Assembly: GCA_964017235.1 (NCBI GenBank) | Contig: OZ024936.1 | Coordinates: 59,633,028 to 59,697,027 of the forward strand | DNA from: Sabellastarte sp. h YS-2021 | Taxonomy: Eukaryota; Annelida; Polychaeta; Sabellida; Sabellidae | Reading direction: 5' to 3' | DNA: 64,000 nt | Program-made: the position numbers and the translations under genes | The notes under the pieces: model-generated | The model's input: only the letters and a program-made list of their open reading frames with translations | The model's database searches: none | What the model was told of the DNA's origin: nothing | In this document: piece by piece, positions 34,014-49,290 of the stretch | Position numbering within the stretch: the stretch's first letter is position 1 | Layout: each line of letters begins with the position of its first letter

Positions 34014-35694
34014 CGGCGGCGGAACCGTCTCCAATGATGCATCATATCTGTCGAGATTTGGTGTCTCCAATTCACATTACAGGCTGTACTGTGTCACACG
34101 CTCGCATGCAGTACGTCAGACGGCAATTGAAGGACTGGCAGTTTTGACGAACGCCTACTGTCGCGTGACGTAACGCCTGTACTGCTATTGGGGTAATGTG
34201 TCAACAGATATAAGCTCACCACACGGCAGAGTATCCGTCTTTGTAGTGCCTTGATCTAACAGCCCGTATTTGTAGGAGTACATTATGTCCAATATATATG
34301 AAGTTTTTCCCAGCAAGCAACACCAGCAAACATAAATCGAGTGTGCACTTTTAGTTACTGGTTAACGGCTCTTGTTAACTGTTATGATTTAATACTTGTG
34401 TTTGATCAGGGGGAAAGTACGTACGTTAGATAAAATACATACAGTATACTCTGGTTTATTTGTTCAACTGACTGGGGGGGGGGGGGGGGGGGGGGTCTCT
34501 GTCCGGCTGGGAAACTATTTAGAAAAAGATTTGCATGGTCTTTTTACTGGTGTGGTCGAAAGCTCAACCGTGCGCATGCGCGAGCTGTTTTTCCTGAGAT
34601 TTTTTTGGCAATCAAAAACTTTATAAAAGTATTAATACTGCAAATAAAAAAATTTAAAAAAATCTTTTAGAAAAGACATACCAAATCTGCAGTTCTATTT
34701 TCCTCGATCTTCAATTATAGTTGCATATTGTCAAACCAGACGCCGACTGGAAACTTGAGGTTCTCGTAAAGTGTGCATTATTTTCCCAGTAAGGCAACTT
34801 TTTCATACTTTACCTATCACAACAAGGCACACTATTGATTTTCCACAAGGCGCAAACTTTCTATTCCAAAGATAATCCCTTCACTGAGTACTGTAATGTT
34901 TACAGAATTATGATAATAAGAAGAATAAGAATAATTATCCTGAAGCATATATGAAATCCCACACTGCTTGTTATTGGGTTAAGAGAACACAATGAGAGTA
35001 CACGGGTAGTCACAATTATGTCCGGCTCATAATTGTGTCCTTTAATTATTTCTTCACTAAATGTGAATGTACTCGGTTTGGGAGTTTGGTTCAATTTTTA
35101 AAATTTTTAGTAAATAAAATTGATCTCAAAGGGAATAATTTTTTAAAAATATTCAAAATTCTGGTTGTAACATTTTAAAAGAGAAACTCCAATAAAAATC
35201 GGACATAATTATGAACCGGACACAATTGTGACCACCCGTGTACACGTATACATTTTGTGTAACATGAAGATACTTTTTACAGGTTAATTTGTTATATTAC
35301 ACCCTCAGTATAAGAACTGAGGAAGTATGCAGTATATTATTGGGACTCTCCCTAATTTCGTAAATTGATGTAGTGTACATCAAAGCAGAAAACCAAAACA
35401 CATAAAGTTCAGTGTATTCAGTGCATATGCATGAAATTAATAAACATACATCCACGCATCACGATCAATACTTTCTTACCATAATACCATATAGAAACTA
35501 TATAAAGTATGCATATCTTAATGACAAAATGCTTCAAATGACACGAGTGAATTTTTGGGCGTTCCCGGGGGGGGGGGGGGGGGGAAATGACTACCAATGA
35601 CCAGTTATTTTGTTGTGATCACCAGATGTTGTGGTGGTCACCACTTATCCCCCCTATCCCCCCCCCCCCCCCCCCCCCGCTGACTAGATGATAT
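34014..35694. other. Unassigned sequence left of the LTR element
   Basis: No gene is supported. It contains a 22-base G run (34474-34495), an 18-base G run (35567-35584) and a C run of about 21 bases (35658-35678). Confidence 0.55.
34474..34495 (+). repeat. Poly-G tract
   Basis: Twenty-two consecutive G. Length in such tracts is prone to sequencing error and it could form a G-quadruplex. Confidence 0.85.
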
Positions 35695-35891
35695 TGAAGA
35701 AAGAACTTCTTACCATAAACTGCTTCTCTGTAAATGGTAGCCCTCTTGCAATGGCTGAAGTGATGTTCACAGATTTCTACATTCTACTTGTTTCTAGCTA
35801 GAGCTCTACAGGAAGTCACTTTAAATCTCCATCCGGGCATCCCAAATACCGAATCACCACTTCCCGCGGGGACACGCTAGTTGCCGTCACA
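35695..35891 (-). repeat. 3' LTR (197 bp)
   Basis: It is a 197-bp direct repeat of 48499-48695 with only a few differences. On the minus strand it begins TGTGACGGC and ends TTCTTTCTTCA. The differences show the element is not brand new. Confidence 0.95.
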
Positions 35892-35914
35892 ATATTCCCC
35901 CCTGTTTTCTTTAA
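35892..35914 (-). promoter_or_regulatory. Polypurine tract
   Basis: On the minus strand AAAGAAAACAGGGGGGAA lies a few bases before the 3' LTR. This is where plus-strand DNA synthesis is primed. Confidence 0.8.
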
Positions 35915-36231
35915 GCCTCCAAGCTACTCCTTAACTCACACATGCTTCCCTTGTAGTTCCCATTAGTGACACATTTACTTCTTATTCAATAGCTCCTTTG
36001 CTGAATGCTGGGGATGGTGACAATTCAATACTGCAGAACAATGTCAAAAATTTCCTTTGGTTCACACTGAGCAACATACATGCTGATGTGCTAAATATAG
36101 AACATAATATGGTTTGGATATGATGACGTCCTCATAATCCACAATAGTCCCACTGCTAAATTATGGAAGGTTATAGATCTCTTTAGCGTTCTCATTGGCG
36201 ATCTCAAGTAACCTTCGCAAAGACACTCCCC

Positions 36232-37060
36232 TCAGCTCGGCAACTTTTCGCGTTGTTCGGCATGAGATGGCAGCTTGAGATATGGTGAATCTGTCTCCAG
36301 GAGGATTCGCCTGTCATCTAGGGTTTTGACTACATCGTCTACCTGAGAATGCTTGTTCTTTCCCAACAGGAGAGCGGTAAACCCAAATCTAATCCTGGGG
36401 AAAGTGCTCGTCCAATGCCTCATCTCGTTCAATCCATTGTTAAAACAGTGCAGATGTAAGGTTACTGAATTCTTGTCGAATGCAGGGACTTCTTCTGACA
36501 GGACCTTTCGGCACAGTATTGCTGCGTCATTTGATCCTGGTCCATCACGGCAGTGTAATACTATTGTCTTATTATACAATTTCTGGCCGGCATAAAATTT
36601 GACCATGTCTCTCAATAGTGTTTCCTGCTCACTCTTGTGGTTCTTAAAGTTACCAGAAAAATCAAAACCTATTTCGCCAATTCCGACACACCTTTCATCA
36701 CTGCATATGGCATTTTTTACTCTAACAATTTCCTCGCGAGACACCTCATGAGCTCTTTTTGGATGAATGCCATGGGTTCTAAAAATTCTTTCATCACCAT
36801 TTCTTTTGACATCCTTGGCAGACACTCCGTGACAAAAATTAGCTACAACAGCCTCCACGTGAACTTGAATGTCAGGCTGTGCACCCTTCTTAAGCATTTC
36901 AGTGAGATCTTGGCAACCACTGTACGCTTTCAGTTTGTCAAGATTCATGTGAGAATCGATGTAGCTCACCGTATCAGCGCTAACTGCAATGGACGGACTC
37001 CCTAGCAACACAGATGACAACGATACTCCCAGGACTAACTTCGTCAGCTGAGGCGAGTAG
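36232..37060 (-). pseudogene. ORF3 C-terminal part: TatD-family metal-dependent nuclease domain
   Basis: The sequence matches the TatD DNase / TATDN family, a TIM-barrel metal-dependent hydrolase. In the frame ending at 36232 these landmarks occur in order: DSHMNLD (residues 56-62), GIHP (118-121), GIGEIGFD (147-154, metal-ligand Glu150), LHCRDG with His190, LHLHCF with His225, and LLETDSPYL with Asp278. The usual HxH at the start reads H-M-N here, so one metal ligand is lost or replaced. The frame changes from the preceding ORF at about 37000-37060; upstream residues of this frame are probably not native. It is a domain of the LTR element's third ORF and not a host TATDN gene, because it lies between integrase and the polypurine tract with no introns. 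Confidence 0.82.
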
Positions 37061-38470
37061 CAAAGACTCATCCAAGGGTGCAGGTGCAGCACCTGCACAC
37101 ACTTTAGATTCATCTTGAACAATGGTCTCTGTATCCATCTTTTCTTCCTCTCTCACTGGAGCTTCCTCCGGCTGTTCACTTGAGTCGTGCTCAGCAACTG
37201 GGAGTCTTGGCTGCTCATTTGAGTCATGCTCAGCAATGTTGACTTTCTCCTCACCAATATAATTAATAATGGTCGATACAACTCTCCAGTGAGCTAATGC
37301 AGCCTCACAACTGGGCGGATCTATTGTGGGTTGACTCAACAAATCCTGACCTGTTGACCACTTATGGAAGTTCTTTATAAAATCAATATCTTCCTCAGAT
37401 AACTGATATTTGGTGCCCTCTGGGAACCATTTCTCCCTCAAGACAAAAGACAATAGTTCTTCATGACTATCTAAATTAAGGAGACATTCTAGATGTTTCA
37501 ATGACCAGTTGATTGAAGACATTCTTTTCTCTTCTGGCATAGGTAACCATGAGGCAAAACTTCTAGACAAATGTTTGCCAGCTATATGTCTCTTTACATG
37601 AGTCATGGTAAGTTTACAGTTCTTCATATAACATTTAGGGCGTCTTAGCCTACGTTTCTTGATTGGGATGCCTGAGCTCACTCCAGTTTCAGATATCCTC
37701 TTCCTGATGCCTGAATCAATACTCTCTGCCTTCTTGACTATAGTTTCCCGTGGTTTCACTTCGCTTTTTGGTTGACCTTTGGAAATAGTTGAAGTGAACT
37801 TCGGAACAGATGTAGCACTGCTCGAGCAACCTGCAGCTTCTTCCAGCATTCGTCGAATCCTTCGGCTGCTAACCTCTAGAAGTAAACCCTGATTAAAAGG
37901 GTTGAGTGGTGCAGCACTGGCTGCAACTACATCCGATATGACCTGTCTGTCCACAAGAGTATAAAGTTGCTTCAACAAATTCACAACCTCTTCGCAGGCC
38001 TTCTCATTAGATCTCGCACTACGAGAATCTGATCCTTGTTTGGTGTGGCAAGGTGAAACTCTCGTTTCTCTTGATCTTTTCTTATCTGAAGAGGTTGAAA
38101 CAACAACAGATTTCACCTTCTGTTTCTTCGTTTCGGACACTGGATCCCTGTGCTCAACATAACATGCGTTGGATTCAACTCTAGCAGACCTGGATTGATC
38201 CGAAGCTTGTCGATCACTGTGTTTCACTATTGACACGCTAGTGGAATTATGTATGGTCTTGGGCACAGTAACTTGAAGCTGATGTTTCCGAGTAGTTCCT
38301 TCCGGTATAGTTACTCGGCATCCTTGCTCCTTTGGGTATTGGGGAGGCATTGAAGTAACTTGATGGGAGACCCTTTTAGTGGCCTTAGTGGCAACATTTG
38401 TAGACATATGTACAGTTCTTGAAGGTTCCGGGTAGGAAGCATGTTCGGACCTTGACTCTGCGGCCCCTTG
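36980..38470 (-). pseudogene. ORF3 middle part: Arg/Ser/Lys-rich region with possible zinc-binding motif
   Basis: This frame is open over about 500 residues, after a shift from the first ORF3 frame near 38450-38470. The N-terminal half is low-complexity and basic, with ETKKQKVKSVVVSTSSDKKR typical of it. It is followed by a basic segment (IPIKKRRLRRPKC) that looks like a nuclear localisation signal. A C-x4-C-x5-H-x3-H-x4-H cluster at about 37570-37650 may bind zinc. A helix-rich segment and an acidic, Glu-rich linker with two EHDSNEQP-like repeats precede the TatD domain. I recognise no family for this part. Confidence 0.65.
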
Positions 38471-38894
38471 ACTTAGAGTGTGTATGTGTCGCTGTACTTG
38501 AGCTCGTACCCTGGGCGTAACGTCTGCTGTAGGAGTGAGGAGCAGGTTGAGCATGTGAATGCTGACGTCTTGAATTTGACAGCTGAACAATAGATGGTGA
38601 GACATATGTAAAGTGTTCAAATGAATGAGGAGCTTGGGTAACCCGTGTTGAAGGTGTCTGTGGACGTTCAAATACATGGCGGGAGGGATTAGTGTTGGTC
38701 TGCTCCCTACGTGGAAGATGTACACCTGGTTCAGTGACATTGCGAGATCGACGGGGCTGGCGTGTCCTCGGGAACCTTTGGGGCCTCGGAGGGAGTAGGA
38801 ATTCCTCTTCATAAGAGCCAGCAAGCTCATAACCCCTATTCCCTCTGCTCCTTGCACCAGTCCTCAAAATGTAGGCATAGCTTCTTTGTGACAT
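38385..38894 (-). pseudogene. ORF3 N-terminal part, Arg-rich
   Basis: It starts with ATG at 38892-38894 (MSQRSYAYILRTGARSRGNR) directly after a splice-acceptor-like sequence. The residues are rich in Arg, Ser, Pro and His and are probably disordered and nucleic-acid binding. The native reading probably changes to the other frame near 38450-38470; past that, this frame soon stops. The overlapping frame that starts near 38857 looks like a shadow here. Confidence 0.6.
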
Positions 38895-38920
38895 CTGAAG
38901 AGAAAAGAGATTAGATCTTT
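38895..38920 (-). promoter_or_regulatory. Candidate 3' splice site for ORF3 mRNA
   Basis: A pyrimidine tract (CTCTTTTCTCTTCAG) ends exactly before the ORF3 ATG. This suggests ORF3 is made from a spliced subgenomic mRNA, as env is in errantiviruses. The matching donor was not identified. Confidence 0.5.
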
Positions 38921-39042: not shown

Positions 39043-39823
39043 TTAACTACAGTAATCCTGTAAATAGTTTGGGCGCCTCCTTTCCCTCCCATATCTGGTA
39101 GGCGGTAGATGTTGCGAATCTGGTTGAATAGAGGACTCCTCGTCCCCAGGTGCAATTGTAAATTCAAAATCCAATTTTTCTTCCGTAACATATTGCTCAA
39201 GGTTATATGGCTGCATTGTAGGTGACTCTACATGTTCTTCAAAAAGTCTATCCAGTTCAAGGTCTTCCCCCGGAAACAAGTGATCAACCCCCTCTATCTC
39301 CGCACCATTTAGGATATTATTCCTCTTTCGTCTCAACCAAAATGGAACATCCCTGTCTCCACAGGGTTTTAATCTATCGTGATGAAGGACGAAGGTTTTA
39401 TTCCTGCCAGCTACAACAAATAAAATTGGGGAGATAACTCTGGAGATAACATATGGACCCTTCCACACTGGTTGCAATTTTGGACTCACTCCCAGTTTCT
39501 TTGCCGAATCGATCACATAGACTAGATCCCCAACTTCATAAGAAACAACTTTAAGCTTCATGTCATAATCTCGCTTCTGCCGCATTTGACTAGAAAGCAG
39601 ATTTTCTCTAGCAAGAGTATGCACCTGCTTCATAATGTGTTGTAATTTATTCACATATTCAGCTGGAAACATCCTATCCTGTGTTTCAGATTCTCCAATC
39701 ATGAGATTCACGGGCAACAAAATTTCTCTACCAAGCATCATCAGATTTGGAGTGAACCCTGTAGTTCGATTTATGGTAGACCATATTGCACCAGCGAGCT
39801 GCTGTAAGTGCTCATCCCATGAT
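39043..39823 (-). pseudogene. Integrase C-terminal part with GPY/F module
   Basis: The frame resumes on the far side of the SINE and reads WDEHLQQLAGAIWSTINR, then a segment with MMLGREILLP, as in Gypsy integrases. The motif WKGPYVISRV (GPY/F module) and LHHDRLKPC follow. An acidic tail ends in GRERRRPNYLQDYCS. It is cut off from the catalytic core only by the SINE. Confidence 0.88.
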
Positions 39824-39837
39824 TTCTGATTACTTCT

Positions 39838-40072
39838 GTTGATTTGATGATTTGGGGTTTTACGTCGCTTTCAACACTGTACAGGTCATATCACGACGGG
39901 TAGTTGGAAGGGCAGAGGAAACCAGTACATATAGTTCGCTAGGGTTCTGTACTGTAAACTGCCGACCAACGGCAAGCAACCACCAGCTTTCCCACTTACG
40001 GCCATGATGGGGATCGAACCCCGGCCGCAGAGGTGGGAGGCGAGAGTGTTACCACTCTGCCACCGTGTCCCC
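39838..40072 (-). repeat. tRNA-derived SINE, family 1, inserted in integrase
   Basis: The head at 40072 has an A box (GGTGGCAGAGTGG) and the B box GGGGTTCGATCCCC. TTCTGATTACTTCT flanks it at 39824-39837 and 40073-40086, a perfect 14-bp target duplication. It closely resembles the copy at 26977-27211. Confidence 0.95.
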
Positions 40073-42288
40073 TTCTGATTACTTCTAAGGAAGCACCTGA
40101 TAAGTTGCAGCAAAGTACGGTTGTACCGTTCAACCTGTCCGTTAGAGCAAGGTCTGTAGGGGGTGGTCCTGGACTTAGAAATCTGCAGCAATTCACACAC
40201 TGATGCAAATAGATTGCCATCAAAGTTCCTTCCCTGGTCCGTATGAATTTCTATCGGACAGCCCAACCTGGAAATGAATCCATTCACCACACACTTTGCA
40301 GTTTCCTCTGCACTCTGACAAGGAAGTGGGAAGCACTCCAGCCACTTTGTGAACTGGTCCACTATCATCAGTACATACTGGTTTCCCTTATCACTTGGAG
40401 TGAATGGTCCCAAGATGTCTATATGCACACGTTCCATTGGAATTCTTGCATAATATTGTCCTAAACCTGCTTTTGCTTTAATGTTGGCTTTCTTGTTCCT
40501 ATTGTATATATTGCAAGATTTGACAAATAGTTCTACATCCTTGGCCATTCGATACCAAACGTAGTTCATACGGATACGCAATAACGTTTTTGCTATACCC
40601 ATGTGTCCCGTTAATGGCAAATCATGACTCAAAGACATAATCTCTTGCATCAAACTTTCTGGAACAATCAGTAACAAGCGATCCCTTGTACTGTCCTTCC
40701 ATAAATAAAAAAGAAGTCCATTTCCGTAAACCAATTGCTCCCTATTCAGATAGAAATATTTCACTGCAGGACCACATAGGGCCAAATCCTTTTGTTTCAG
40801 CTCAATATCAGTAGAGATCCAACTGATTAACTTCTGTGTAGTAGAGTCTTGCAGTTGCAATTCGGATAGCTGTTCCTTGGTATAACCAGGGATCCATGAT
40901 TCTGGTTGGACGGAAACGGATCTAACAGCTAGGGGCACCACCTCATTCACATCGTCTTCAAACCTGGACCATTGCTGGTGAGCCCTTGTGCAAAATGAAC
41001 ATCCTTTGCAAGGCAGAGATTGCAATTCCATTCCTGCTCTGTAGCAGTCACAAAAGATCTCATTATCTGGAATTCTGGACAAGCCATCAGCGTTCCCATG
41101 CTTGCTTCCTGATCGATGCAATATGGTCATGTCAAACTGGCTCAACTCCTCCAACCATCTGGCTAGCTGTCCCTCTGTATACTTAAAACGCAGCAGCCAA
41201 GTTAAACTATTATGGTCCGTTCTGAGTAGAAACTTGCGTCCCAGAAGATAGTGTCGAAACTGTCTCGTGAAGCGGACAACAGCAAGTAGCTCCCTCCTGG
41301 TCACACAATATTTTCGCTGCTCCGGAGTCAGTACAAAGCTCCCATAACACACAACTCTCTCCTCTCCATCCTGGATTTGTGACAAAACCGCACCAATGGC
41401 AGTTCCTGAAGCATCAGTGTCCAATATGAAATTATTATCTGGACTAGGGTAAGTCAAAATCGGAGCATTAACTAGCTTTTCTTTAATGCTGTCGAATGCC
41501 ACCTGATGGACTTCATCCCAGACAAATGATGCGTTTTTTCCTGTGAGCTTGTACAACATGGCTGTGATCTCAGCATAGTTTTTAATATGGTCCCGATGAT
41601 AATTAGCAAAGCCAAGAAATCTCTCCATATCATTGACAGATCGCGGAATTGGCCATTTCTGTACTTTTTCTATATTTTCAGGATTCACAGCCACTCCTTT
41701 GGCACTCACTTCTCGCCCTAAAAAAGTGGTTTCAGTGTGGAACAAGTTGCACTTTTTCGGCTTCAATTTTAGGTTGTACTTTCTGAACCTTCCAAATGTC
41801 AATCTGAGGTTGGAAAGATGATCTGCAAAGTCTTTTCCCAGTACAATGACATCGTCCAGGTAAGCCAGAATCTTACTCCATGTTAAACCACGCAACACAA
41901 ATTGTATCACCCGCTGGAAAGTTGCTGGAGCATTGCACAGGCTAAAGGCCATTCGCTTGTGCTCAAAGAGACCATATTTGGTGATAAAAGCAGTTTTGTG
42001 CCGATCTTTCTCATCTATCTCAATCTGCCAATAGCCACTGGCCATGTCAAGAGTTGAGAAATACATATTGCCAGAAAGTTGATCCAAACATTGAGAAATT
42101 GAAGGCAATGGGAATAAATCTTTGATTGTTTTGGTATTGAGTGATCTGAAGTCAACACAATATCTCACGGTGCCATCTCTCTTTCTCACAAGAACAGGTG
42201 CTGAAGCCCAATCAGATGAGGATTCAGTGATAATCCCAATATCCAACATCAACTTAAGATTTTCTTCTTCTTCCCCTTCAAAGCCCAA
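40073..42288 (-). pseudogene. Pol: reverse transcriptase, RNase H and integrase core
   Basis: RT: YCVDFRSLN, first catalytic Asp81 in LDMASGYW, and YLDD at residues 143-146. RNase H: DTDASG (Asp292), Glu333 in RRELLAVV, Asp358 in RTDHNS and Asp401 in GNADGLSR. Integrase: the zinc-finger histidines (SHDLPLTGH) are present but the CxxC reads C-N-I-Y, so the last cysteine is lost. Catalytic residues lie in HIDILGPF, HTDQGRNF and NGQVERYN. The frame continues upstream into protease past an in-frame TGA, and downstream it is broken by the SINE. Confidence 0.93.
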
Positions 42289-42294
42289 AGGTGT

Positions 42295-43298
42295 TCATCG
42301 CATCGGATGCTTCACAGGTTTCTCTTCACCGGTGTTGATGGAATGTTTTATTTCAGTGAAACATCCCAAATCATGGCTACCCTTTGAGAATATATCCTGG
42401 AAATCTAATAGTAGCAAACAAACTTCTTGTGCTTCCTGTTCATTCAATGATTTAATTGAACGTTTCAGCAATCCCTCTAGATGGTCTGGAAAGGTTAATT
42501 TTTTGTTTTCTGTTGAAGCAAACGGTTCCTTTTGGTAGGACAGGACACCATCACACTCTACAGCATAGCCCAGAATGTGACCACACTGCAAAACTATGGT
42601 GTCATCTGTATCATTAACCAACTGAATTGGAACTATTTCTTCTGATTTCACCAGCATATTAGGTAACAACAGACCCTTGTTGTCCCCGGCTGAGGATATG
42701 ACCACATCGCCAGGTAGGATATCTGTTAACATGGCAGTAGACCTAAGTACACAGTTAGATGGAATCTCTAACCTCTCCTTGGCAACCACTTGGCAGGATG
42801 AATACACTTTCCCATCATCGGTCTGAAACATTGACAACCTTAACAGTGAATTATCCAAAGTAAGGGAACATTTGTCAAAGTCCATGACCGCTTTGAAATG
42901 GCAAAGGAAATCTATCCCTATGATGAGAGGTTCCACAATGTCAGCTACAAAAAAGTTCCACAGGAAATTCTTCTTGTCATTGAATGAGACTTTGACTCCT
43001 TCAAATAGCTTTGCTTCCAACTTGACATCTTGAATGATTCCCTCAAGTTTCAGTTTATCAGTCAATTTTGGCTGGTGATCAAGTTGCTGATACAGTTTTG
43101 CGCTCATGAGTGCAATTTGAGCTCCTGTGTCTATTAGAGCTTTTGTTTTTTGTCCCTGGATCACACAGTCAATTAAAACACTCAAATTTTTCAGATTCTT
43201 CTTCTGAAGCTTTCTGCAACGGAAATAACAACGTCCATGCGAAACCCCTTGTTTTTTCAATTGGGAAAAGGCGAGGGGTTGAAAAGCGCCTTCCCCTC
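42295..43298 (-). pseudogene. Pol N-terminal part: retropepsin-like aspartic protease
   Basis: The frame is entered by the -1 shift at 43302 and has no start of its own. The active site reads LIDTGAQIALMS, and the flap and C-terminal LIIGIDFLCHF segment fit retropepsins. A linker leads to RT in the same frame. The frame ends at TGA 42295-42297, exactly where other Gypsy elements read Arg-Arg-Thr-Pro. A C-to-T change in a CGA codon would explain it. Confidence 0.88.
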
Positions 43299-43308
43299 CT
43301 AGTTTAAA
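43264..43308 (-). promoter_or_regulatory. Programmed -1 frameshift site between gag and pol
   Basis: The slippery heptamer T-TTA-AAC (43302-43308) is in the gag frame and is followed at once by the gag stop TAG (43299-43301). Slipping back one base after AAC enters the protease frame exactly. A five-base spacer is followed by GGGGAAGGCG (43287-43296), which can pair with CGCCTTTTCC (43264-43273) in a ten-pair stem with two G-U pairs and a 13-base loop. Confidence 0.82.
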
Positions 43309-44440
43309 GACTTCTCAGAGTCTGCAAACTTCACATTTGACTTCTCTCCTTTTAGGTTAAATGAAGCTCCATTTTGGCTTTTAAAGTTCGGGGGAGATCT
43401 TGGTGGCGGTGGACTGCTGTATCTAGACTGTGGGCTAGGATCTCTCCAATCTGGGTTATCAGTTCGCTGAGGCAAAGGCCTGCAGTTTTCATTTGACCTA
43501 GGTTGAAGAAACCGTCGGTAGTCTTCATTTGGCCTAGGTTGAGGAATCGGTCTGTAGTCTTCAGTTGGCCTAAATTGATAATAGCTTTGGCCCCTGCTTC
43601 TTGGACTACCATAATGATAGCTTCCGCGAGGAGAAACTGGTCTGTGAGGAGAGTTTGGTGGAGTGTAAGGGTCTCGTCTATAAGCATCAGGGTATGGATA
43701 TGGATAGAAACCCCTACCATAATCACTTGGCCTATCCCTCCAGTCCACTCTGTCGCTCCTTGAAGGAGAATTCCTTCTGTCACCCGGATGACGCCTCCTC
43801 CTTGGACAATCCCTGAAAACATGCCCCGGTTCCCCACATTCATAACACTTGAGCCTACTTGGTGAAACCTGACCCTGCTCCCGTTCACCAACCCCGGCCA
43901 AGACCTTCCGTAAACAGGCAACCATCTGTTTGTTCGATACCTTGCCAGAATCCTTAGTCTTCTTTGTTTTGGTGCGTCTAATCCTGGTTTCTGAGAATGA
44001 AGACGCAGATGAATCGCTGTCCAAGAGTGAGCTGGAGTCGTTTGACTCAGCATGCGAAATTTTCTTCACACAGGCCCTCTTCCCCAGAATCACTCTTCTA
44101 AGTTGAACTGCATCAAGGACATGCTTGTAAGCTTCTTCCAAGGTAGAAGGGTGCTTATCTGCTGCACTCAACACAGCATCTTTATCCCGGCAACCTTTCA
44201 TGAAGGCATCCACAAAGAATGGATTACATGCCTCTCTTTTCTGTTCGTCAGGGAAAGATGCAACAATCATTTTTTGCAATCTAGCCAGGTACTTCTCTAG
44301 TGATTTGTCCACCCTTTGTTCTGTTTGAAGTAATTCCCAACGTAGAGCTGATGGAGACTCAGATTTCCCAAAGTGTCCCTGAAACTTCTTCACTAACCAA
44401 TCATAGTCAGTCTCTTCTATTGGACAAAATCCCGTAGTAC
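43299..44440 (-). pseudogene. Gag C-terminal part: capsid remainder and zinc knuckle
   Basis: This frame continues the capsid-like Retrotrans_gag region (KKFQGHFGKSESPSALRWEL ... LQKMIVASFP). A Ser-rich basic linker follows, then a CCHC zinc knuckle CYECGEPGHVFRDCP. The C-terminus is Arg/Pro/Tyr-rich with repeats of the type RPNEDYRRFLQPRSNENCR. It ends at TAG within the frameshift site. It is out of frame with the N-terminal gag part by a one-base change near 44420. Confidence 0.88.
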
Positions 44441-46581
44441 TCGGCAGCTTCCCTCTTTAAAGACATTGCAAAGTTGCGTATCTTCTCAGATCCTGACCAA
44501 TCACAATTCTTGGCTACTAACTCAAATTGTGCTATAAAGCCATTCCAATGTTCCCCCTCGAAAGACAGTTTTGGGATATGCATCTTCTTGCCTCTGTCCC
44601 TGTTCTGTCTCCTAGAACTGTTTCCGATATTTACACTCCTAGAACCACCCGTAGCCAAAACTTCACCATCCCCTTCTTCAGAAGAATTGTCAGAAGTGTC
44701 GTCAGACTTCTTTTGAGTCACAACATTCACCCTTGGTCCACTACGACAGTACACTCCATCTGGGCTTTTGTGTTGAATGGTCGCGGTCACACGTTGAATA
44801 CATTCGTCCTTGGGTGTGGAACAGTGACTAGCTGAATTCTGCACACTCCTTGGAACCGGAATATAAGGTGATGTTTTTGGTAATCCAGCTGGTGGCTCTG
44901 CTATTGTCACATTTTTCTTTGAGATGGTAGCTACCCTGTCAGACAATTCATCAGATGCTTTCAGGTCCAATCCTGTCCACTGGAACCCGTGCAAATTTGA
45001 TGGCAACTCGTATTCAATGTTGAAAGTGCCCTTCATCACCCGCAATTGTTGACCAATTTTACTCAAAACAGGCTGTCTCTTTGCTTTAAACACCTGACCT
45101 TGGACGTTGAGTACATGCTGGTGAGCATCCTCAATGTCAGCAAGACAAGGCCCATATGATCCCCTCTTCATTTCCCCCAATTGCTTTTCCTGTTCCCTCA
45201 GGGTCTGCTCATGCCTTTGAAGAACCGCTTCATTCTCAACTAAAAACTTGGAGAGTTCTTGAAATGAAGTGAAAAGGTCCCTCTCCATGGCTTGGTAAAC
45301 TGGATCCGTAGAAACAGCCACCTTGGGGTTCAAATCACCAGAATCTTTCTGCGTCACCACAGGTATCTTCTTCAAACTGTCAACCTCTTCCCTCATGGTG
45401 CGCACTTGCATTTGCACACCATCCAAGCTTACAGAAAGGTCGGTCACCTCATCCCTGTGCTGCTTCTGTTGCAGTTCAAGTGATGCCACTCGAGTTGAAC
45501 ACTGCTCCTGATCCCGCTCCATATTGATCCTACACACTTCCAAGCGATCCTGACTCTCTGATACCACCCGCAGCTCTCTATGGTATTTCTCATCCTGCTG
45601 ATTCAAGTCAGATTGAAGTCCCACAATATCGTTTCTCACAGAGTCAGAAACACCCTCCTGTTGAACCAGTTTATTCTGAAGATCAGCCACCCTGGACTCA
45701 ACAGCTTTTACACCATCTCTCCATTCTTGATAAGCTCCCTGGACCTCCTTACGCATATCACACTTGAACTGGTCATGTGATAGGAACAGCCCCTGTACTG
45801 AGGATTCAACAGCCTTTGCTTCCTCACTCAAGTCATCACAATGGGTATGCAATCCCTCAACAGCGGTAACTCGCTCATCAAGTCCCGTTACCATGGCTGC
45901 AAGTTTCAAATTACTGTCATTGGCAGCGCTCACCGAGACCTTAAGATTACCCACAGCTTCAGACAGCATGGACACTTTCTCCCCAGTAGAATCCTGAGAT
46001 TCACACAGAATCTGCAGTTTCTTATGTGTGCGCTTACTGGATCTCCTGATATCCCGCAAAATAGCAAACAGGTCCTTGGAATTCATTTCAGATCCGCTAT
46101 CACCACTGGCAAAACTTCCATCAGAGTCCGATTCTGTCTTTATCAACCCAGCGGAATGTTCTCCGTCATAAGCTCCTTGGAACTGATGCGGATTCATCGA
46201 CATCAAGTGATCTGTGTTGGAGCATACTTGATTTGCAGTAGTCCCGACTGTGGTCAACTGTAACTCAGACTGGGCCAAGGGTCCATTATCAGAACAAAGT
46301 TGACCCATCTGCGAAAACTGCGCTCCGTCTGAATACACTGAGACCTCCCCACTGAAGCGAATCAAGTTATTTGCAAAAATGTATTGTATCACTGAACCAC
46401 CTGTTAATCTTTCCTCTTGAAACTGGCTTCTCGTCAGCTGACCCCCATTCCTATCTCGGGCAGCCAAGATGTTTTTAGCCTTCCTTTCACCCACATCCTT
46501 GATTCTCATCAAGTCGGCTTTGCTGGCCAACTCTATGTCAATTGTCTCCATCACCGCCCCTGAATCCTGCTGATTGTTCAT
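44407..46581 (-). pseudogene. Gag N-terminal part: HhH-like segment, coiled coil, capsid start
   Basis: The likely start is ATG 46579-46581 (MNNQQDSG). Residues about 15-46 (ELASKADLMRIKDVGERKAK and on) resemble the helix-hairpin-helix of ComEA-like proteins. A long heptad-rich coiled coil covers the middle, roughly residues 200-420. The C-terminus (IPKLSFEGEHWNGFIAQFEL) begins the Retrotrans_gag domain. The frame then stops at TGA while the domain continues in the neighbouring frame, so gag is broken by one base. The protein would be far longer than usual Gypsy Gag. Confidence 0.85.
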
Positions 46582-48480
46582 CTTCAAAAAAAAACAATCT
46601 GAACAAAAACAAAATACAGACAAAAACACACAAATGCAAAGTCAAATTATCGAAATATTGCAAAGTTCAAAGTAAATAATTTTGAAAACTCAAAATTGAA
46701 AATTTCCACATCAGTATGTAAATCAAAAGCCACACTGATATGAATTAAAACAAAATTCACACCGTTACCAAAATTCAGATAAGTGTGAAAATTTCAAAAA
46801 TTGCACAAAGTTCACACAAGTACAAAAATTGACAAAGTATGAAATATTAAAAATTCAACAAGAGCAAATGCTAAATAGCAATTTCAAAACAAACTGCCAA
46901 AATGCTGAAATGGAAATAAATTAGTAACACAATATCAACAATGTCAATAAAAGTAAAATACAAAAATACAATAAAGACAATGAATACAATTAAGAAAATT
47001 GAATTAAATTGTAATTTCACAAAAATTTGGAAAAAATTCAAACTCACTTTTACTAAAAAATGTTATATCTATTTCCAACAACTACAAAATTATTCCAAAG
47101 TTACTTCCAAAATCAAAATATTTTCAAATTTGGTATAAAAATGCTAATGAGAATTTCAAATTACTGTCACTGAAACAAATTCAATTGCAAATCCCACGAC
47201 AAATCACCTATCACACCAGCTTTGTAAATAAATAAATAAATAACACACTCTCACCTCAATTCGTCCGTTCCAACAAAAATACAAACAAATATATCAATAT
47301 TGAATTTATAAATATGAACATATAATACAAAATGAATATACGGATCCGAACCAGTTATTCCATGCAATAAAAACCAGTTACTGTTCGTAATAAACAATCT
47401 GAGCAGAAATACCGGTTATTCTACACAATAAAAACTAGTTACTTTTCGCAATAAACAATTCACGCAAAAATACCGGTAGTTATTGTACGGATGTACGCAA
47501 TAAGTTATTTATGCAAAAGAAAAAAAAAATGTACTACAACTACGATAGACCTTAACTACCATGCACAAGACAATATTCACATGTACTTGAATACGTTAGT
47601 AAAGTACGATAATCAAGTTACAAATTTAAATCACTCTTCCAAAATTAATGCAATAATTTACTGATAAATTACACACAAAAGCTAATGAAAAGTTAAATAT
47701 TATTTCTCTGCAATTTACTATTTAAGATACAAGTTATCCTCACTAAATCAGTAACACTATCAGCAAATTAAAAGTTACTATTAAAAATTTACTAATACTG
47801 AATTGCAAAATTACATGTAAATTCTGCACTACATCCACCACTTTTATGGATTTTACTACCAAAATAACGTTAAATTTGTGAATACATCAGGCAGTAAATT
47901 TATTCACACAATAATTCACCGTATCGCCAATCACAAAGCGAATATTTTTAAATTATTGTGAATATTTATGTAACTGGACCTCGGCCGTACCGACAATCAA
48001 TCCCTTCCAGTTAATGAAGAGTAACCACAACTAGCAAATATTATGGTTTAATAATTATTTAAATTAAAATAGAAACTACACAACAAATAGTCAATGCAAA
48101 ATTAGGACAGCAATAACACCATCAAGGCCTGTGTCATCCACTTGCAGACTAAAAGTACTGTGTAATTTGATTACTAGAGTTGAAAACTGGTGCAAAATTA
48201 TCAACTTACATCAAAATTTACACCAAAATTACCGGAAATCACGCTAAGTTTTACCGGAAATCACGCTAAGTTTTACCGGTAAAAAGGGCATAAAACACAC
48301 CTGATATGTATTCACACCTGCACTCCTGATATGTATTCAAGTAACCAGATTAATATAGCAGTGGTGGTTTATGCTGACAATCGAAAATACCTGATATATT
48401 CAGACAAAAATGCAGCAATAAAAGAAGGAAAACAAACCCCCTTCAAAAGCACCAGAGAAGCAAAAATGCTAATCCTAGCA
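46582..48480 (-). other. Untranslated leader of the LTR element
   Basis: About 1.9 kb of strongly A-rich (plus strand) sequence lies between the primer-binding site and gag. I see no long ORF in it. It may hold the packaging signal, the splice donor for ORF3 or an internal entry site, but no motif proves this. Confidence 0.6.
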
Positions 48481-48497
48481 CCCCACTTCTGGTACCA
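48481..48497 (-). promoter_or_regulatory. Primer-binding site matching a leucine tRNA
   Basis: CCCCACTTCTGGTACCA on the plus strand equals the 3' end of a tRNA with CCA added. It fits tRNA-Leu(UAA) of animals, which ends CCCCACTCCTGGTA plus CCA, with one difference. It lies one base inside the 5' LTR. Confidence 0.8.
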
Positions 48498-48498
48498 A

Positions 48499-48695
48499 TG
48501 AAGAAAGAACTTCTTACCATAAATTGCTTCTCTGTAAATGGTAGCCCTCTTGCAATGGCTGAAGTGATGTTCACAGATTTCTACATTTTACTTGTTTCTA
48601 GCTAGAGCTCTACAGGAAGTCACTTTAAATCTCCATCCGGGCATCCCAAACACCGAATCGCCACTTCCCGCGGGGACACGCTAGTCGCCGTCACA
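48499..48695 (-). repeat. 5' LTR (197 bp)
   Basis: It is the partner of 35695-35891, with identical length and TG...CA ends. It is short for an LTR and should hold the promoter on the minus strand. Confidence 0.95.
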
Positions 48696-49290
48696 ATAAT
48701 ATGAAGAGTGCTGGATCCTCTGTTGTTAATGACATGATATAGTGATGACCAGAAAAAGAGTGGCGAGCATCACATCATCCGGTGATCACAAAACAATTAT
48801 AATTAGTGATCACCACATGATTTGGGGATGACTACAATATAACTAAGTCATTCTCACAATTAGATTTTCGGGGCAATTTCACTTTACCGGTTCGGTATCC
48901 GCCATATTTGATAATTACAGGTAATTGTCAAGGAAATGTGGAATTAAATTAACAGTTATAAATTGGGGCAAGCCCCCAACCTCCCATAAAAAAGGATTCT
49001 GGTATATTTCGATGTAAATAAAAGGATGGAATTGCTAAAACGTGGAATTATATTATTGTCCAACTCCCCCAATTACACTCAGAACTAATCATTGAGGGAG
49101 TCATTGCTTCAGCTTATTAAAAGTTAGTTCAAAGTCATACATATATTTGAAAATGTTATTTACGGGGAAAAATAAAGATAAACAATAAACACGTCCATAA
49201 TCATCACTTAAAACAATTGATATATTAATAAACATGCACAAATATACATGGGTACATATATCAATATTTAACAACATTGACATTGGCCAC
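48696..49290. other. Unassigned sequence right of the LTR element
   Basis: No gene is seen. GTGATCACC motifs occur here and also just left of the element (35615-35645), so the element may sit in an older repeat. Confidence 0.45.

What the first reader, a model, noticed from the sequence alone, without database searches (positions are those of the whole stretch)
36232..38894. Ty3/Gypsy element carrying a third ORF with a TatD-family nuclease domain
Between integrase and the polypurine tract, where env-like genes lie in some elements, this LTR element encodes a basic region, a Cys/His cluster and a TatD-type hydrolase with recognisable GEIGFD, LHCRDG, LHLHCF and ETDSPYL motifs. TatD enzymes act on DNA ends or as 3'-5' exonucleases. 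A retroelement-borne copy could process cDNA ends, trim target DNA or counter host defence. The domain fit is seen in the sequence and the role is inference. I do not know whether this family has been described.
Basis: partly seen in the sequence, partly recalled or inferred. Interest (0 to 1): 0.87.

Follow-up and report, generated by a model that had tools for sequence, protein, structure and literature searches.

The report
Jumping genes carrying a TatD nuclease
A lineage of retrovirus-like jumping genes in this animal genome carries, besides the usual genes, its own TatD-type DNA/RNA-cutting enzyme that selection has kept in shape, which points to an overlooked step in how such elements copy or protect themselves.

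Summary
The minus-strand element (LTRs 35695-35894 and 48499-48698; gag, PR, RT-RNaseH-IN) has after integrase an ORF3 ending in a TatD domain (PF01026, 106.7 bits, E 1.7e-30). The window copy is broken: ORF3 lies in several frames and one metal-binding His is Asn. It is no one-off capture. The unnamed 1.79-Gb genome holds at least 140 such TatD places. Of 103 related RTs scored, 98 were examined: 96 have TatD downstream on the same strand, mostly 3.4-4.3 kb away; in two ORF3 is interrupted. Three places with pol only 54-60% identical carry it too. Metal ligands are intact in 74 of 75 sequences. TatD dN/dS is 0.31 and 0.18 in two families. A splice-acceptor-like site sits at the ORF3 start (rank 1 of about 500 AGs in 5 of 8 elements), suggesting a spliced message. 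No membrane segment was seen. Best reading: an old, selected class II TatD accessory nuclease acting on replication intermediates or RNA; substrate untested. Ten paper searches, judged from listings, showed no description.

The parts
48499..48698 (-). 5' LTR (about 197-200 bp), with a donor-like ATG|GTAAGA at about 48520-48512 near its 3' end
48480..48497 (-). primer-binding-site-like TGGTACCAGAAGTGGGGT, 1 nt after the LTR (tRNA identity not tested; looks tRNA-Leu-like from recall)
   Evidence: by eye
44407..46629 (-). Gag N-terminal part with helix-hairpin-helix motif (about 46548-46414) and coiled-coil-like stretch
   Evidence: HHH_3 E 1e-6, 29.1 bits (cut-off 27); weak SMC/Rad50-type matches
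43299..44393 (-). Gag C-terminal part with CCHC zinc knuckle (about 43850-43803)
   Evidence: zf-CCHC E 5.6e-6
42295..43260 (-). aspartic protease region
   Evidence: gag-asp_proteas E 4.5e-7
39886..42288 (-). reverse transcriptase, RNase H, integrase zinc-binding and core domains (RT-RH-IN order)
   Evidence: RVT_1 5.8e-25, RT_RNaseH 2.3e-32, Integrase_H2C2 1.9e-16, rve 2.1e-13
39043..39741 (-). integrase C-terminal part after the insert
   Evidence: Integrase_p58_C 1.5e-5 (below Pfam cut-off); 42-83% identical to the integrase ends of other copies
38895..38915 (-). 3' splice-acceptor-like ctaatctcttttctcttcag directly before the ORF3 ATG
   Evidence: best-scoring of 512 AGs in the 6.5-kb stretch
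38385..38894 (-). ORF3, N-terminal basic part from its ATG (first frame)
   Evidence: P0122 reads on from here in one frame
36980..38857 (-). ORF3, middle part (second frame; its coding part starts inside this span): basic region, KKRRLRR, zinc finger about 37633-37564, helical module to about 37255
36232..37059 (-). ORF3, TatD nuclease domain (third frame)
   Evidence: PF01026 106.7 bits
36164..36244 (-). C-terminal end of the TatD domain (VAELRGVSLRRLLE...IYNLP), in another frame than the rest of the domain
35895..35915 (-). polypurine tract (AAAACAGGGGGGAA) before the 3' LTR
   Evidence: by eye
35695..35894 (-). 3' LTR

Best explanation
The window holds one decayed copy of an LTR retrotransposon from an old Ty3/gypsy lineage whose third gene encodes a zinc-finger protein ending in a TatD nuclease. 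Shown by sequence: the gene stays downstream of pol in diverged families of the lineage in this genome, is under purifying selection in the two families tested, keeps the full metal-binding set of class II TatD enzymes, has basic runs, lacks predicted membrane segments in the five proteins tested, and in most elements tested starts at a strong splice-acceptor-like site. Inferred: it is translated from a spliced subgenomic mRNA (donor near the end of the LTR), as env is in retroviruses, but yields a soluble nucleic-acid-binding nuclease instead of an envelope. Inferred, most likely role: it trims 3' ends or RNA-DNA hybrids of the element's replication intermediates (primer remnants, overhanging cDNA ends) before or during integration, with the zinc finger and helical module giving substrate or chromatin binding. 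Rough odds: active nuclease 0.85; spliced expression 0.8; acts on replication intermediates 0.4, against RNA-based host defence 0.25, on nuclear R-loops of the element 0.15, other 0.2.
For: TatD domain. 140 scored places, of which 79 have an open frame of 600 or more residues (5 of 15, 43 of 82 and 31 of 43 in three identity bands). Linkage to pol: 59 of 103 RTs at once, 0 on the opposite strand within 15 kb; then 18 of 20 fetched, 15 of the remaining 24 from the tables, and 4 of 4 fetched. LTR pairs enclose it. Two diverged families E and F, three places, at 54-60% identity to the window's pol, and a tandem unit with IN plus ORF3. dN/dS: TatD 0.31 (A, 7 copies) and 0.18 (C, 9 copies); zinc finger plus helical module 0.06 (4 copies) and 0.10 (9 copies). 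Metal ligands H,H,E,H,H,D in 74 of 75. Acceptor. Donor-like GTAAG near the LTR end in families A and C. No membrane segment. Recent movement in family C: 1 difference in 6,707 nt between L017 and L022, with different flanks. Class II enzymes (TATDN2/3) carry HxH: PMC10085689, passages. TATDN2 as RNA nuclease on R-loops: PMC12709183, passages, citing other work.
Against: No expression, splicing or enzyme data. The metal-ligand test used a motif filter that favours the first two His. The dN/dS used only open copies, so stops were excluded beforehand, and covers two of the families. Families C, E and F have weaker acceptors (ranks 28, 31 and 13), and for B copy L012 the first ATG of the open frame has none (its N-terminal part is probably in another frame). 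N-terminal parts evolve almost freely (dN/dS 0.40-0.53); the N-terminal part of P0164 is not basic (pI 6.6). The tree does not show a single origin of the ORF3 TatDs: family E sits next to the bacterial/TATDN3 branch with weak support. The element's own RNase H could already remove hybrids. Five RTs were not examined.
Confidence: 0.8

Rival explanations
1. ORF3 is a counter-defence factor: a 3'-5' RNA/DNA exonuclease that degrades piRNA/siRNA or defence transcripts so that the element escapes silencing. It would act in trans in the nucleus or in germ granules.
For: TatD enzymes cut ssDNA (and, for E. coli TatD and TATDN2, RNA) from 3' ends. Likely separate spliced expression fits a trans-acting protein, and basic runs fit a nuclear site. 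Accessory ORFs of viruses often do this (general knowledge).
Against: Stable association with one pol lineage and strong conservation of the zinc finger/helical module also fit a replication role. No fast-evolving catalytic face was tested for.
Confidence: 0.25
2. One-off retrocopy: a host TATDN mRNA was captured into a single element copy by template switching, with no function.
For: Other LTR elements have captured host-like enzymes (bdelloid DEDDy and GDSL ORFs, PMC5408684, passages). The window copy is broken.
Against: 140 scored places, 96 of 98 examined RTs followed by it, diverged families, purifying selection.
Confidence: 0.01
3. Env-like gene: ORF3 is an envelope-derived protein and the TatD match is incidental.
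For: Position after pol and a splice-acceptor-like site at its ATG, as for env.
Against: Pfam TatD E 1.7e-30 for the window (213 of 253 positions) and 3e-37 to 4.5e-47 for six longer ORF3-type proteins, intact metal ligands, no membrane segment (highest Kyte-Doolittle 19-residue mean 1.43 among 5 proteins).
Confidence: 0.02
4. Host TATDN2-like genes that happen to lie near gypsy elements, or elements that inserted beside a multigene TATDN2 family.
For: The database lists one such protein as an ordinary gene (Crassostrea angulata LOC128171088), and tandem arrays exist.
Against: Tight same-strand spacing to RT, position inside LTR pairs, open frames up to 978 residues without introns, and the one tandem unit read carries IN as well.
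Confidence: 0.03
5. Repeated capture: different families of the lineage took up TatD genes independently instead of inheriting one.
For: The tree does not unite the ORF3 TatDs; family E branches next to the bacterial/TATDN3 group (88/75) and F is unplaced.
Against: Finger-helical-TatD order is shared: P0160 aligns across finger, helical module and TatD with family E, and copies of families A-D match the finger/helical profile; nearest neighbours agree between pol and TatD for A-D.
Confidence: 0.15

Closest known systems
Bdelloid rotifer LTR retrotransposons with enzymatic ORF3 (Juno/Vesta; DEDDy exonuclease, GDSL esterase), PMC5408684 (abstract and passages seen)
   Same: Extra ORF after pol encodes a 3'-5' exonuclease-type enzyme, without membrane segments; the authors suggest auxiliary replication roles.
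   Different: Different nuclease fold (DEDDy, not TatD). In rotifers the ORF is missing from early branches and was gained at least twice; here it follows pol in 96 of 98 examined RTs of the lineage in one genome, with a zinc finger/helical module and an acceptor-like site at its ATG.
Cellular class II TatD nucleases TATDN2 and TATDN3 / E. coli YcfH (PMC10085689, PMC12709183, passages)
   Same: HxH motif and the other metal ligands; TATDN2 also has an extended, disordered N-terminal region.
   Different: Retroelement-borne, with a C2H2-like finger and helical module not mentioned for the host enzymes in the passages seen. In the tree TATDN3 groups with bacteria (99/97), away from ORF3.
Ty3/gypsy (Metaviridae) elements of molluscs (C-clade, MolGy clades; PMC6238403, passages)
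   Same: gag, PR, RT-RH-IN order, LTRs, abundance in molluscs.
   Different: No word beginning with 'ORF' or 'nuclease' occurs in that paper's main text; the clade of this lineage was not determined.
QatD, TatD nuclease of the bacterial Qat anti-phage system (NCBIfam NF041926)
   Same: TatD family; below-cut-off match.
   Different: 43.6-63.5 bits for the window, P0001, P0126 and P0173 against a cut-off of 230; a defence gene, not a transposon gene.

Membership tests
Ty3/gypsy LTR retrotransposon | Two near-identical LTRs flanking the element | tested here: met
   5 differences in 200
Ty3/gypsy LTR retrotransposon | PR, then RT, RNase H, integrase in this order | tested here: met
Ty3/gypsy LTR retrotransposon | 4-6 bp target-site duplication | tested here: inconclusive
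   flanks allow ATAT only if the LTR starts TATTGTG
Ty3/gypsy LTR retrotransposon | placement inside Ty3/gypsy in an RT tree with reference elements | not tested
   no reference element sequences fetched
TatD nuclease family (PF01026) | profile match above curated cut-off | tested here: met
   window 106.7 bits, cut-off 27; P0126, P0164, P0173, P0176, P0178 and L017 128.8-161 bits, P0186 118.1, P0229 84.2, partial P0199 53
TatD nuclease family, class II | HxH plus E, H, H, D metal ligands | tested here: met
   74 of 75; the exception is the window copy itself
TatD nuclease family | nuclease activity | not testable with these tools
   bench assay needed
TATDN2 orthologue | groups with animal TATDN2 in a tree | tested here: inconclusive
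   only a nematode protein named after Y37H2A.1 available (that this is TATDN2 is from recall); it pairs with P0178 (90/87) on a long branch
TATDN3 / bacterial YcfH clade | groups inside that clade | tested here: not met
   TATDN3 (two pieces) plus 8 bacterial rows form their own starred branch, 99/97
env-like third gene | splice acceptor before the ORF | tested here: met
   acceptor-like site, rank 1 in 5 of 8 chosen elements, ranks 13, 28, 31 in the others; splicing itself not observed
env-like third gene | signal/transmembrane segment | tested here: not met
   highest 19-residue mean 1.43 in 5 proteins; signal peptides not scanned
bdelloid-type DEDDy ORF3 | DEDDy exonuclease domain | tested here: not met
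   TatD is the only Pfam family above cut-off in the ORF3 proteins scanned; other matches are below cut-off

The most novel reading that the evidence does not exclude
A TatD nuclease is a core, ancestral gene of a large mollusc-wide Ty3/gypsy lineage, expressed env-style from a spliced mRNA, and carries out a maturation step on cDNA or RNA-DNA hybrids that other LTR elements leave to the host. Many invertebrate genes annotated 'TATDN2-like' or 'TatD hydrolase' would then be this retroelement gene, and some could be domesticated.
Probability: 0.45. Interest if true: 0.88.

Novelty: new variant of a known kind. Interest (0 to 1): 0.8.

Why it matters
LTR retrotransposons are usually described with gag and pol, and env as the usual extra. 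A nuclease gene kept by selection while pol diverged implies a replication or defence step that is not on the standard map. It is directly testable: look for the LTR-ORF3 splice junction in existing RNA-seq, and assay the purified domain. It also warns annotators: such ORFs are filed as an ordinary gene in Crassostrea angulata, and in bacterial symbiont bins as 'TatD family hydrolase'.

Tried and rejected
Rejected: one-off retrocopy, env, chance match, neighbouring host gene (see rivals). An integrase query that I cut was out of frame, so the 35% integrase identities in that output are an error and are not used; one search gives the right comparison. Scans of viral contigs gave no relative or four weak matches, of which I read one, L036: a bacterial TatD gene next to phage-like genes; the other three were not read. 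The ARAGORN scan of the integrase insert found no tRNA. Host TATDN genes: a search with the nematode protein listed 99 places, many of them with long open frames or at known element copies; no host TATDN gene was recognised, and I did not check each place. Rows listed for the tree but dropped by the motif or length filter: P0003, P0114, P0212, P0220, P0228. L028 was listed for dN/dS but not picked up by the filter. The donor pattern scan over the whole window was uninformative (3 matches, 6.9 expected). Structure prediction and fold search were not possible. A search of the genome with the family C TatD piece did not complete.
Full report
What is in the window. On the minus strand, between LTRs at 48499-48698 and 35695-35894 (5 differences in 200), lies an LTR retrotransposon with gag (helix-hairpin-helix, CCHC knuckle), aspartic protease and RT-RNase H-integrase in Ty3/gypsy order. 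A primer-binding-like TGGTACCAGAAGTGGGGT follows the 5' LTR and a polypurine tract precedes the 3' LTR (by eye). After integrase comes ORF3: a basic N-terminal part, a C2H2-like finger, a helical module and a TatD domain (PF01026, 106.7 bits, E 1.7e-30). In this copy the parts are in different frames, the end of TatD is in another frame than the rest of the domain, and one metal-binding His is Asn, so this copy is decayed. Database proteins P0122 (680 aa, from the N-terminal end into the start of TatD) and P0001 (336 aa, from the linker to the end of TatD) each read across frame changes of the window copy, and copies in the same genome have one open frame from the basic part to the end of TatD.

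The gene belongs to the element lineage. Searching the window's own, unnamed, 1.786-Gb genome with the TatD piece gave 140 scored places (702 first-look candidates): 15 at 88-100% identity including the window itself, the rest at 41-50%. In bands of 80% and more, 44-60% and under 44%, open frames of 600 or more residues are seen in 5 of 15, 43 of 82 and 31 of 43; the window's own family is thus mostly broken. The RT piece gave 103 scored places (21,985 first-look candidates), all at 78% or more. In 59 of 103 a scored TatD place lies downstream on the same strand within 9.1 kb, most at 3.4-4.3 kb, and in none on the opposite strand within 15 kb. Of the 44 others I fetched 20: 18 have TatD downstream (in L010 and some others it is broken). 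Of the remaining 24, 15 have TatD in the tables, and 4 more were fetched and all have it. So 96 of 98 examined RTs have it. In the two others (L009, L015) ORF3 is interrupted; comparing coordinates, a same-strand TatD place lies 23.5 and 15.1 kb further on, for L009 inside the same LTR pair; for L015 I cannot say that it is the same element. Five RTs were not examined. More distant RTs were not scored, so how far the association extends is not known.

LTRs. A DNA search with the window LTR gave 33 places. Reading that table by eye I pair them into 13 LTR pairs, leaving aside a third LTR next to one pair and single LTRs. Twelve enclose a TatD place. The thirteenth (C6:119.68 Mb) has ORF3 with most of TatD deleted.

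Depth. Between families A-D pol (RT to integrase) identity is mostly about 70-79% in the comparisons (lower with the decayed L010 and over the integrase end), and TatD identity is about 40-51%, with the same nearest neighbours (A with B, C with D). Three further places (L033 and L034, family E; L035, family F) have pol 54-60% identical to the window's; gag or protease parts precede it (by eye) and ORF3 with finger, helical module and TatD follows, in L035 in two frames and with a weaker match of the front part. One unit of a tandem array (L131, 62% pol identity to L017) carries integrase followed by ORF3. A protein from another source (P0199) reads from a gag-type helix-hairpin-helix start (matches below Pfam's cut-off) into a TatD end, as an internally deleted element of this kind would. 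A profile search of the protein database gave 332 proteins among the 8,000 candidates scored, the best 120 listed, bacterial TatD enzymes among them. Named sources include Crassostrea angulata and Elysia chlorotica, and bins named Candidatus Thiodiazotropha and Sedimenticola, probably host DNA. For these proteins the genomic context was not seen.

Selection and catalysis. Pairwise dN/dS (NG86, open copies only): family A TatD 0.31 (7 copies), finger plus helical 0.06 (4), N-terminal 0.40 (4); family C TatD 0.18 (9), finger plus helical 0.10 (9), N-terminal 0.53 (8). The six metal ligands are complete in 74 of 75 sequences (22 own, 53 database, the nematode protein included); the single exception is the window copy. 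The filter that picked sequences favours the first two His; the other four were not selected for. HxH puts the enzymes in class II with TATDN2/TATDN3, not with TATDN1 (PMC10085689, passages). In a tree of 35 rows, TATDN3 (two pieces) and 8 bacterial rows form one branch (99/97) and all ORF3 rows lie outside it. Other relations are weaker: 16 of 32 inner branches are well supported, family E stands next to the bacterial branch at 88/75, and a nematode protein named after Y37H2A.1 pairs with P0178 (90/87) on a long branch. A single origin of the ORF3 TatDs and a TATDN2 affinity are therefore possible but not shown.

Expression. Directly or shortly before the ORF3 ATG lies a polypyrimidine-AG. 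I scored eight elements chosen to cover the families. In families A, D, B (L011 and L013, 8 nt before the ATG) and the L131 family it is the best-scoring of 468-519 AGs in the stretch; in C, E and F it ranks 28, 31 and 13. For L011, L013, L033 and L035 the best AG within 80 nt was taken. L012, a further B copy, has none before the first ATG of its open frame, its front part probably being in another frame. For comparison, 4-8% of all ATGs in six of these stretches have a top-6% AG within 10 nt. Near the end of the LTRs of families A and C, whose sequences differ, sits a donor-like GTAAG. I infer a spliced, env-style message; no transcript was seen. ORF3 shows no membrane segment (highest 19-residue hydropathy mean 1.43 among 5 proteins) and has basic runs; the part before TatD has pI 8.9-9.8 in four of the five and 6.6 in P0164. 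Two family C copies differ at 1 of 6,707 positions and have different flanks, so that family moved recently.

Mechanism. TATDN1 and TATDN3 are 3' exonucleases, mainly on ssDNA, and AP endonucleases (PMC10085689), and TATDN2 is reported as an RNA nuclease that resolves R-loops (PMC12709183, citing other work). Obvious substrates of such activities in an LTR element's life are 3' ends of cDNA and RNA-DNA hybrids, so I favour trimming of replication intermediates; attack on host small RNAs is the main rival. Neither is tested.

Known or new. Enzymatic third ORFs are known from bdelloid rotifers, including a DEDDy exonuclease (PMC5408684, abstract and passages). Ten paper searches, judged from their listings, showed no paper that describes TatD in a retroelement; I opened passages of seven papers. 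The library lacks most subscription papers, and Repbase was not searched. I rate it a new variant of a known kind: an LTR element with a captured nuclease gene, new in the nuclease family, in its retention across the lineage examined, and in its likely spliced expression.

Noticed in passing
window 46548-46414 (minus strand); L035; P0199: Gag of this element begins with a helix-hairpin-helix motif (ComEA-like HHH_3, E 1e-6, above cut-off), which I find unusual for a Gag; a similar start is seen by eye in the L035 gag and, below cut-off, in P0199.
   Followed up: partly
window about 39830-40070: A roughly 240-bp repeat-like insert breaks integrase; a 67-residue stretch of the frame across it matches an antisense stretch in the flank of L017 at 69%, so it is probably a dispersed repeat. 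It looks tRNA-derived by eye, but ARAGORN finds no tRNA.
   Followed up: partly
G000:C11:99804132-99831363; G000:C2:3520280-3536059; G000:C19:30984935-31064259: Tandem arrays of TatD matches at about 5.4, 3.85 and 26.2 kb spacing. The one C11 unit read holds integrase and ORF3; how the arrays arose is unknown.
   Followed up: partly
P0144, P0159, P0160, P0163: Proteins named 'TatD family hydrolase' in MAGs of Candidatus Thiodiazotropha and Sedimenticola belong to this eukaryotic ORF3 family; probably bivalve host DNA in symbiont bins (inference).
   Followed up: no
giant squid Hox cluster, PMC6962438: The figure legend lists a putative TATDN2 among the non-Hox genes of the cluster, along with a pogo transposable-element gene; it may be such an ORF3 (inference).
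   Followed up: no
P0186, P0190: TatD proteins with another, coiled-coil-looking N-terminal part and no match to the zinc finger/helical profile; possibly another element type.
   Followed up: no
window about 35567-35584 and 35662-35679: Long G and C homopolymer runs just outside the 3' LTR.
   Followed up: no
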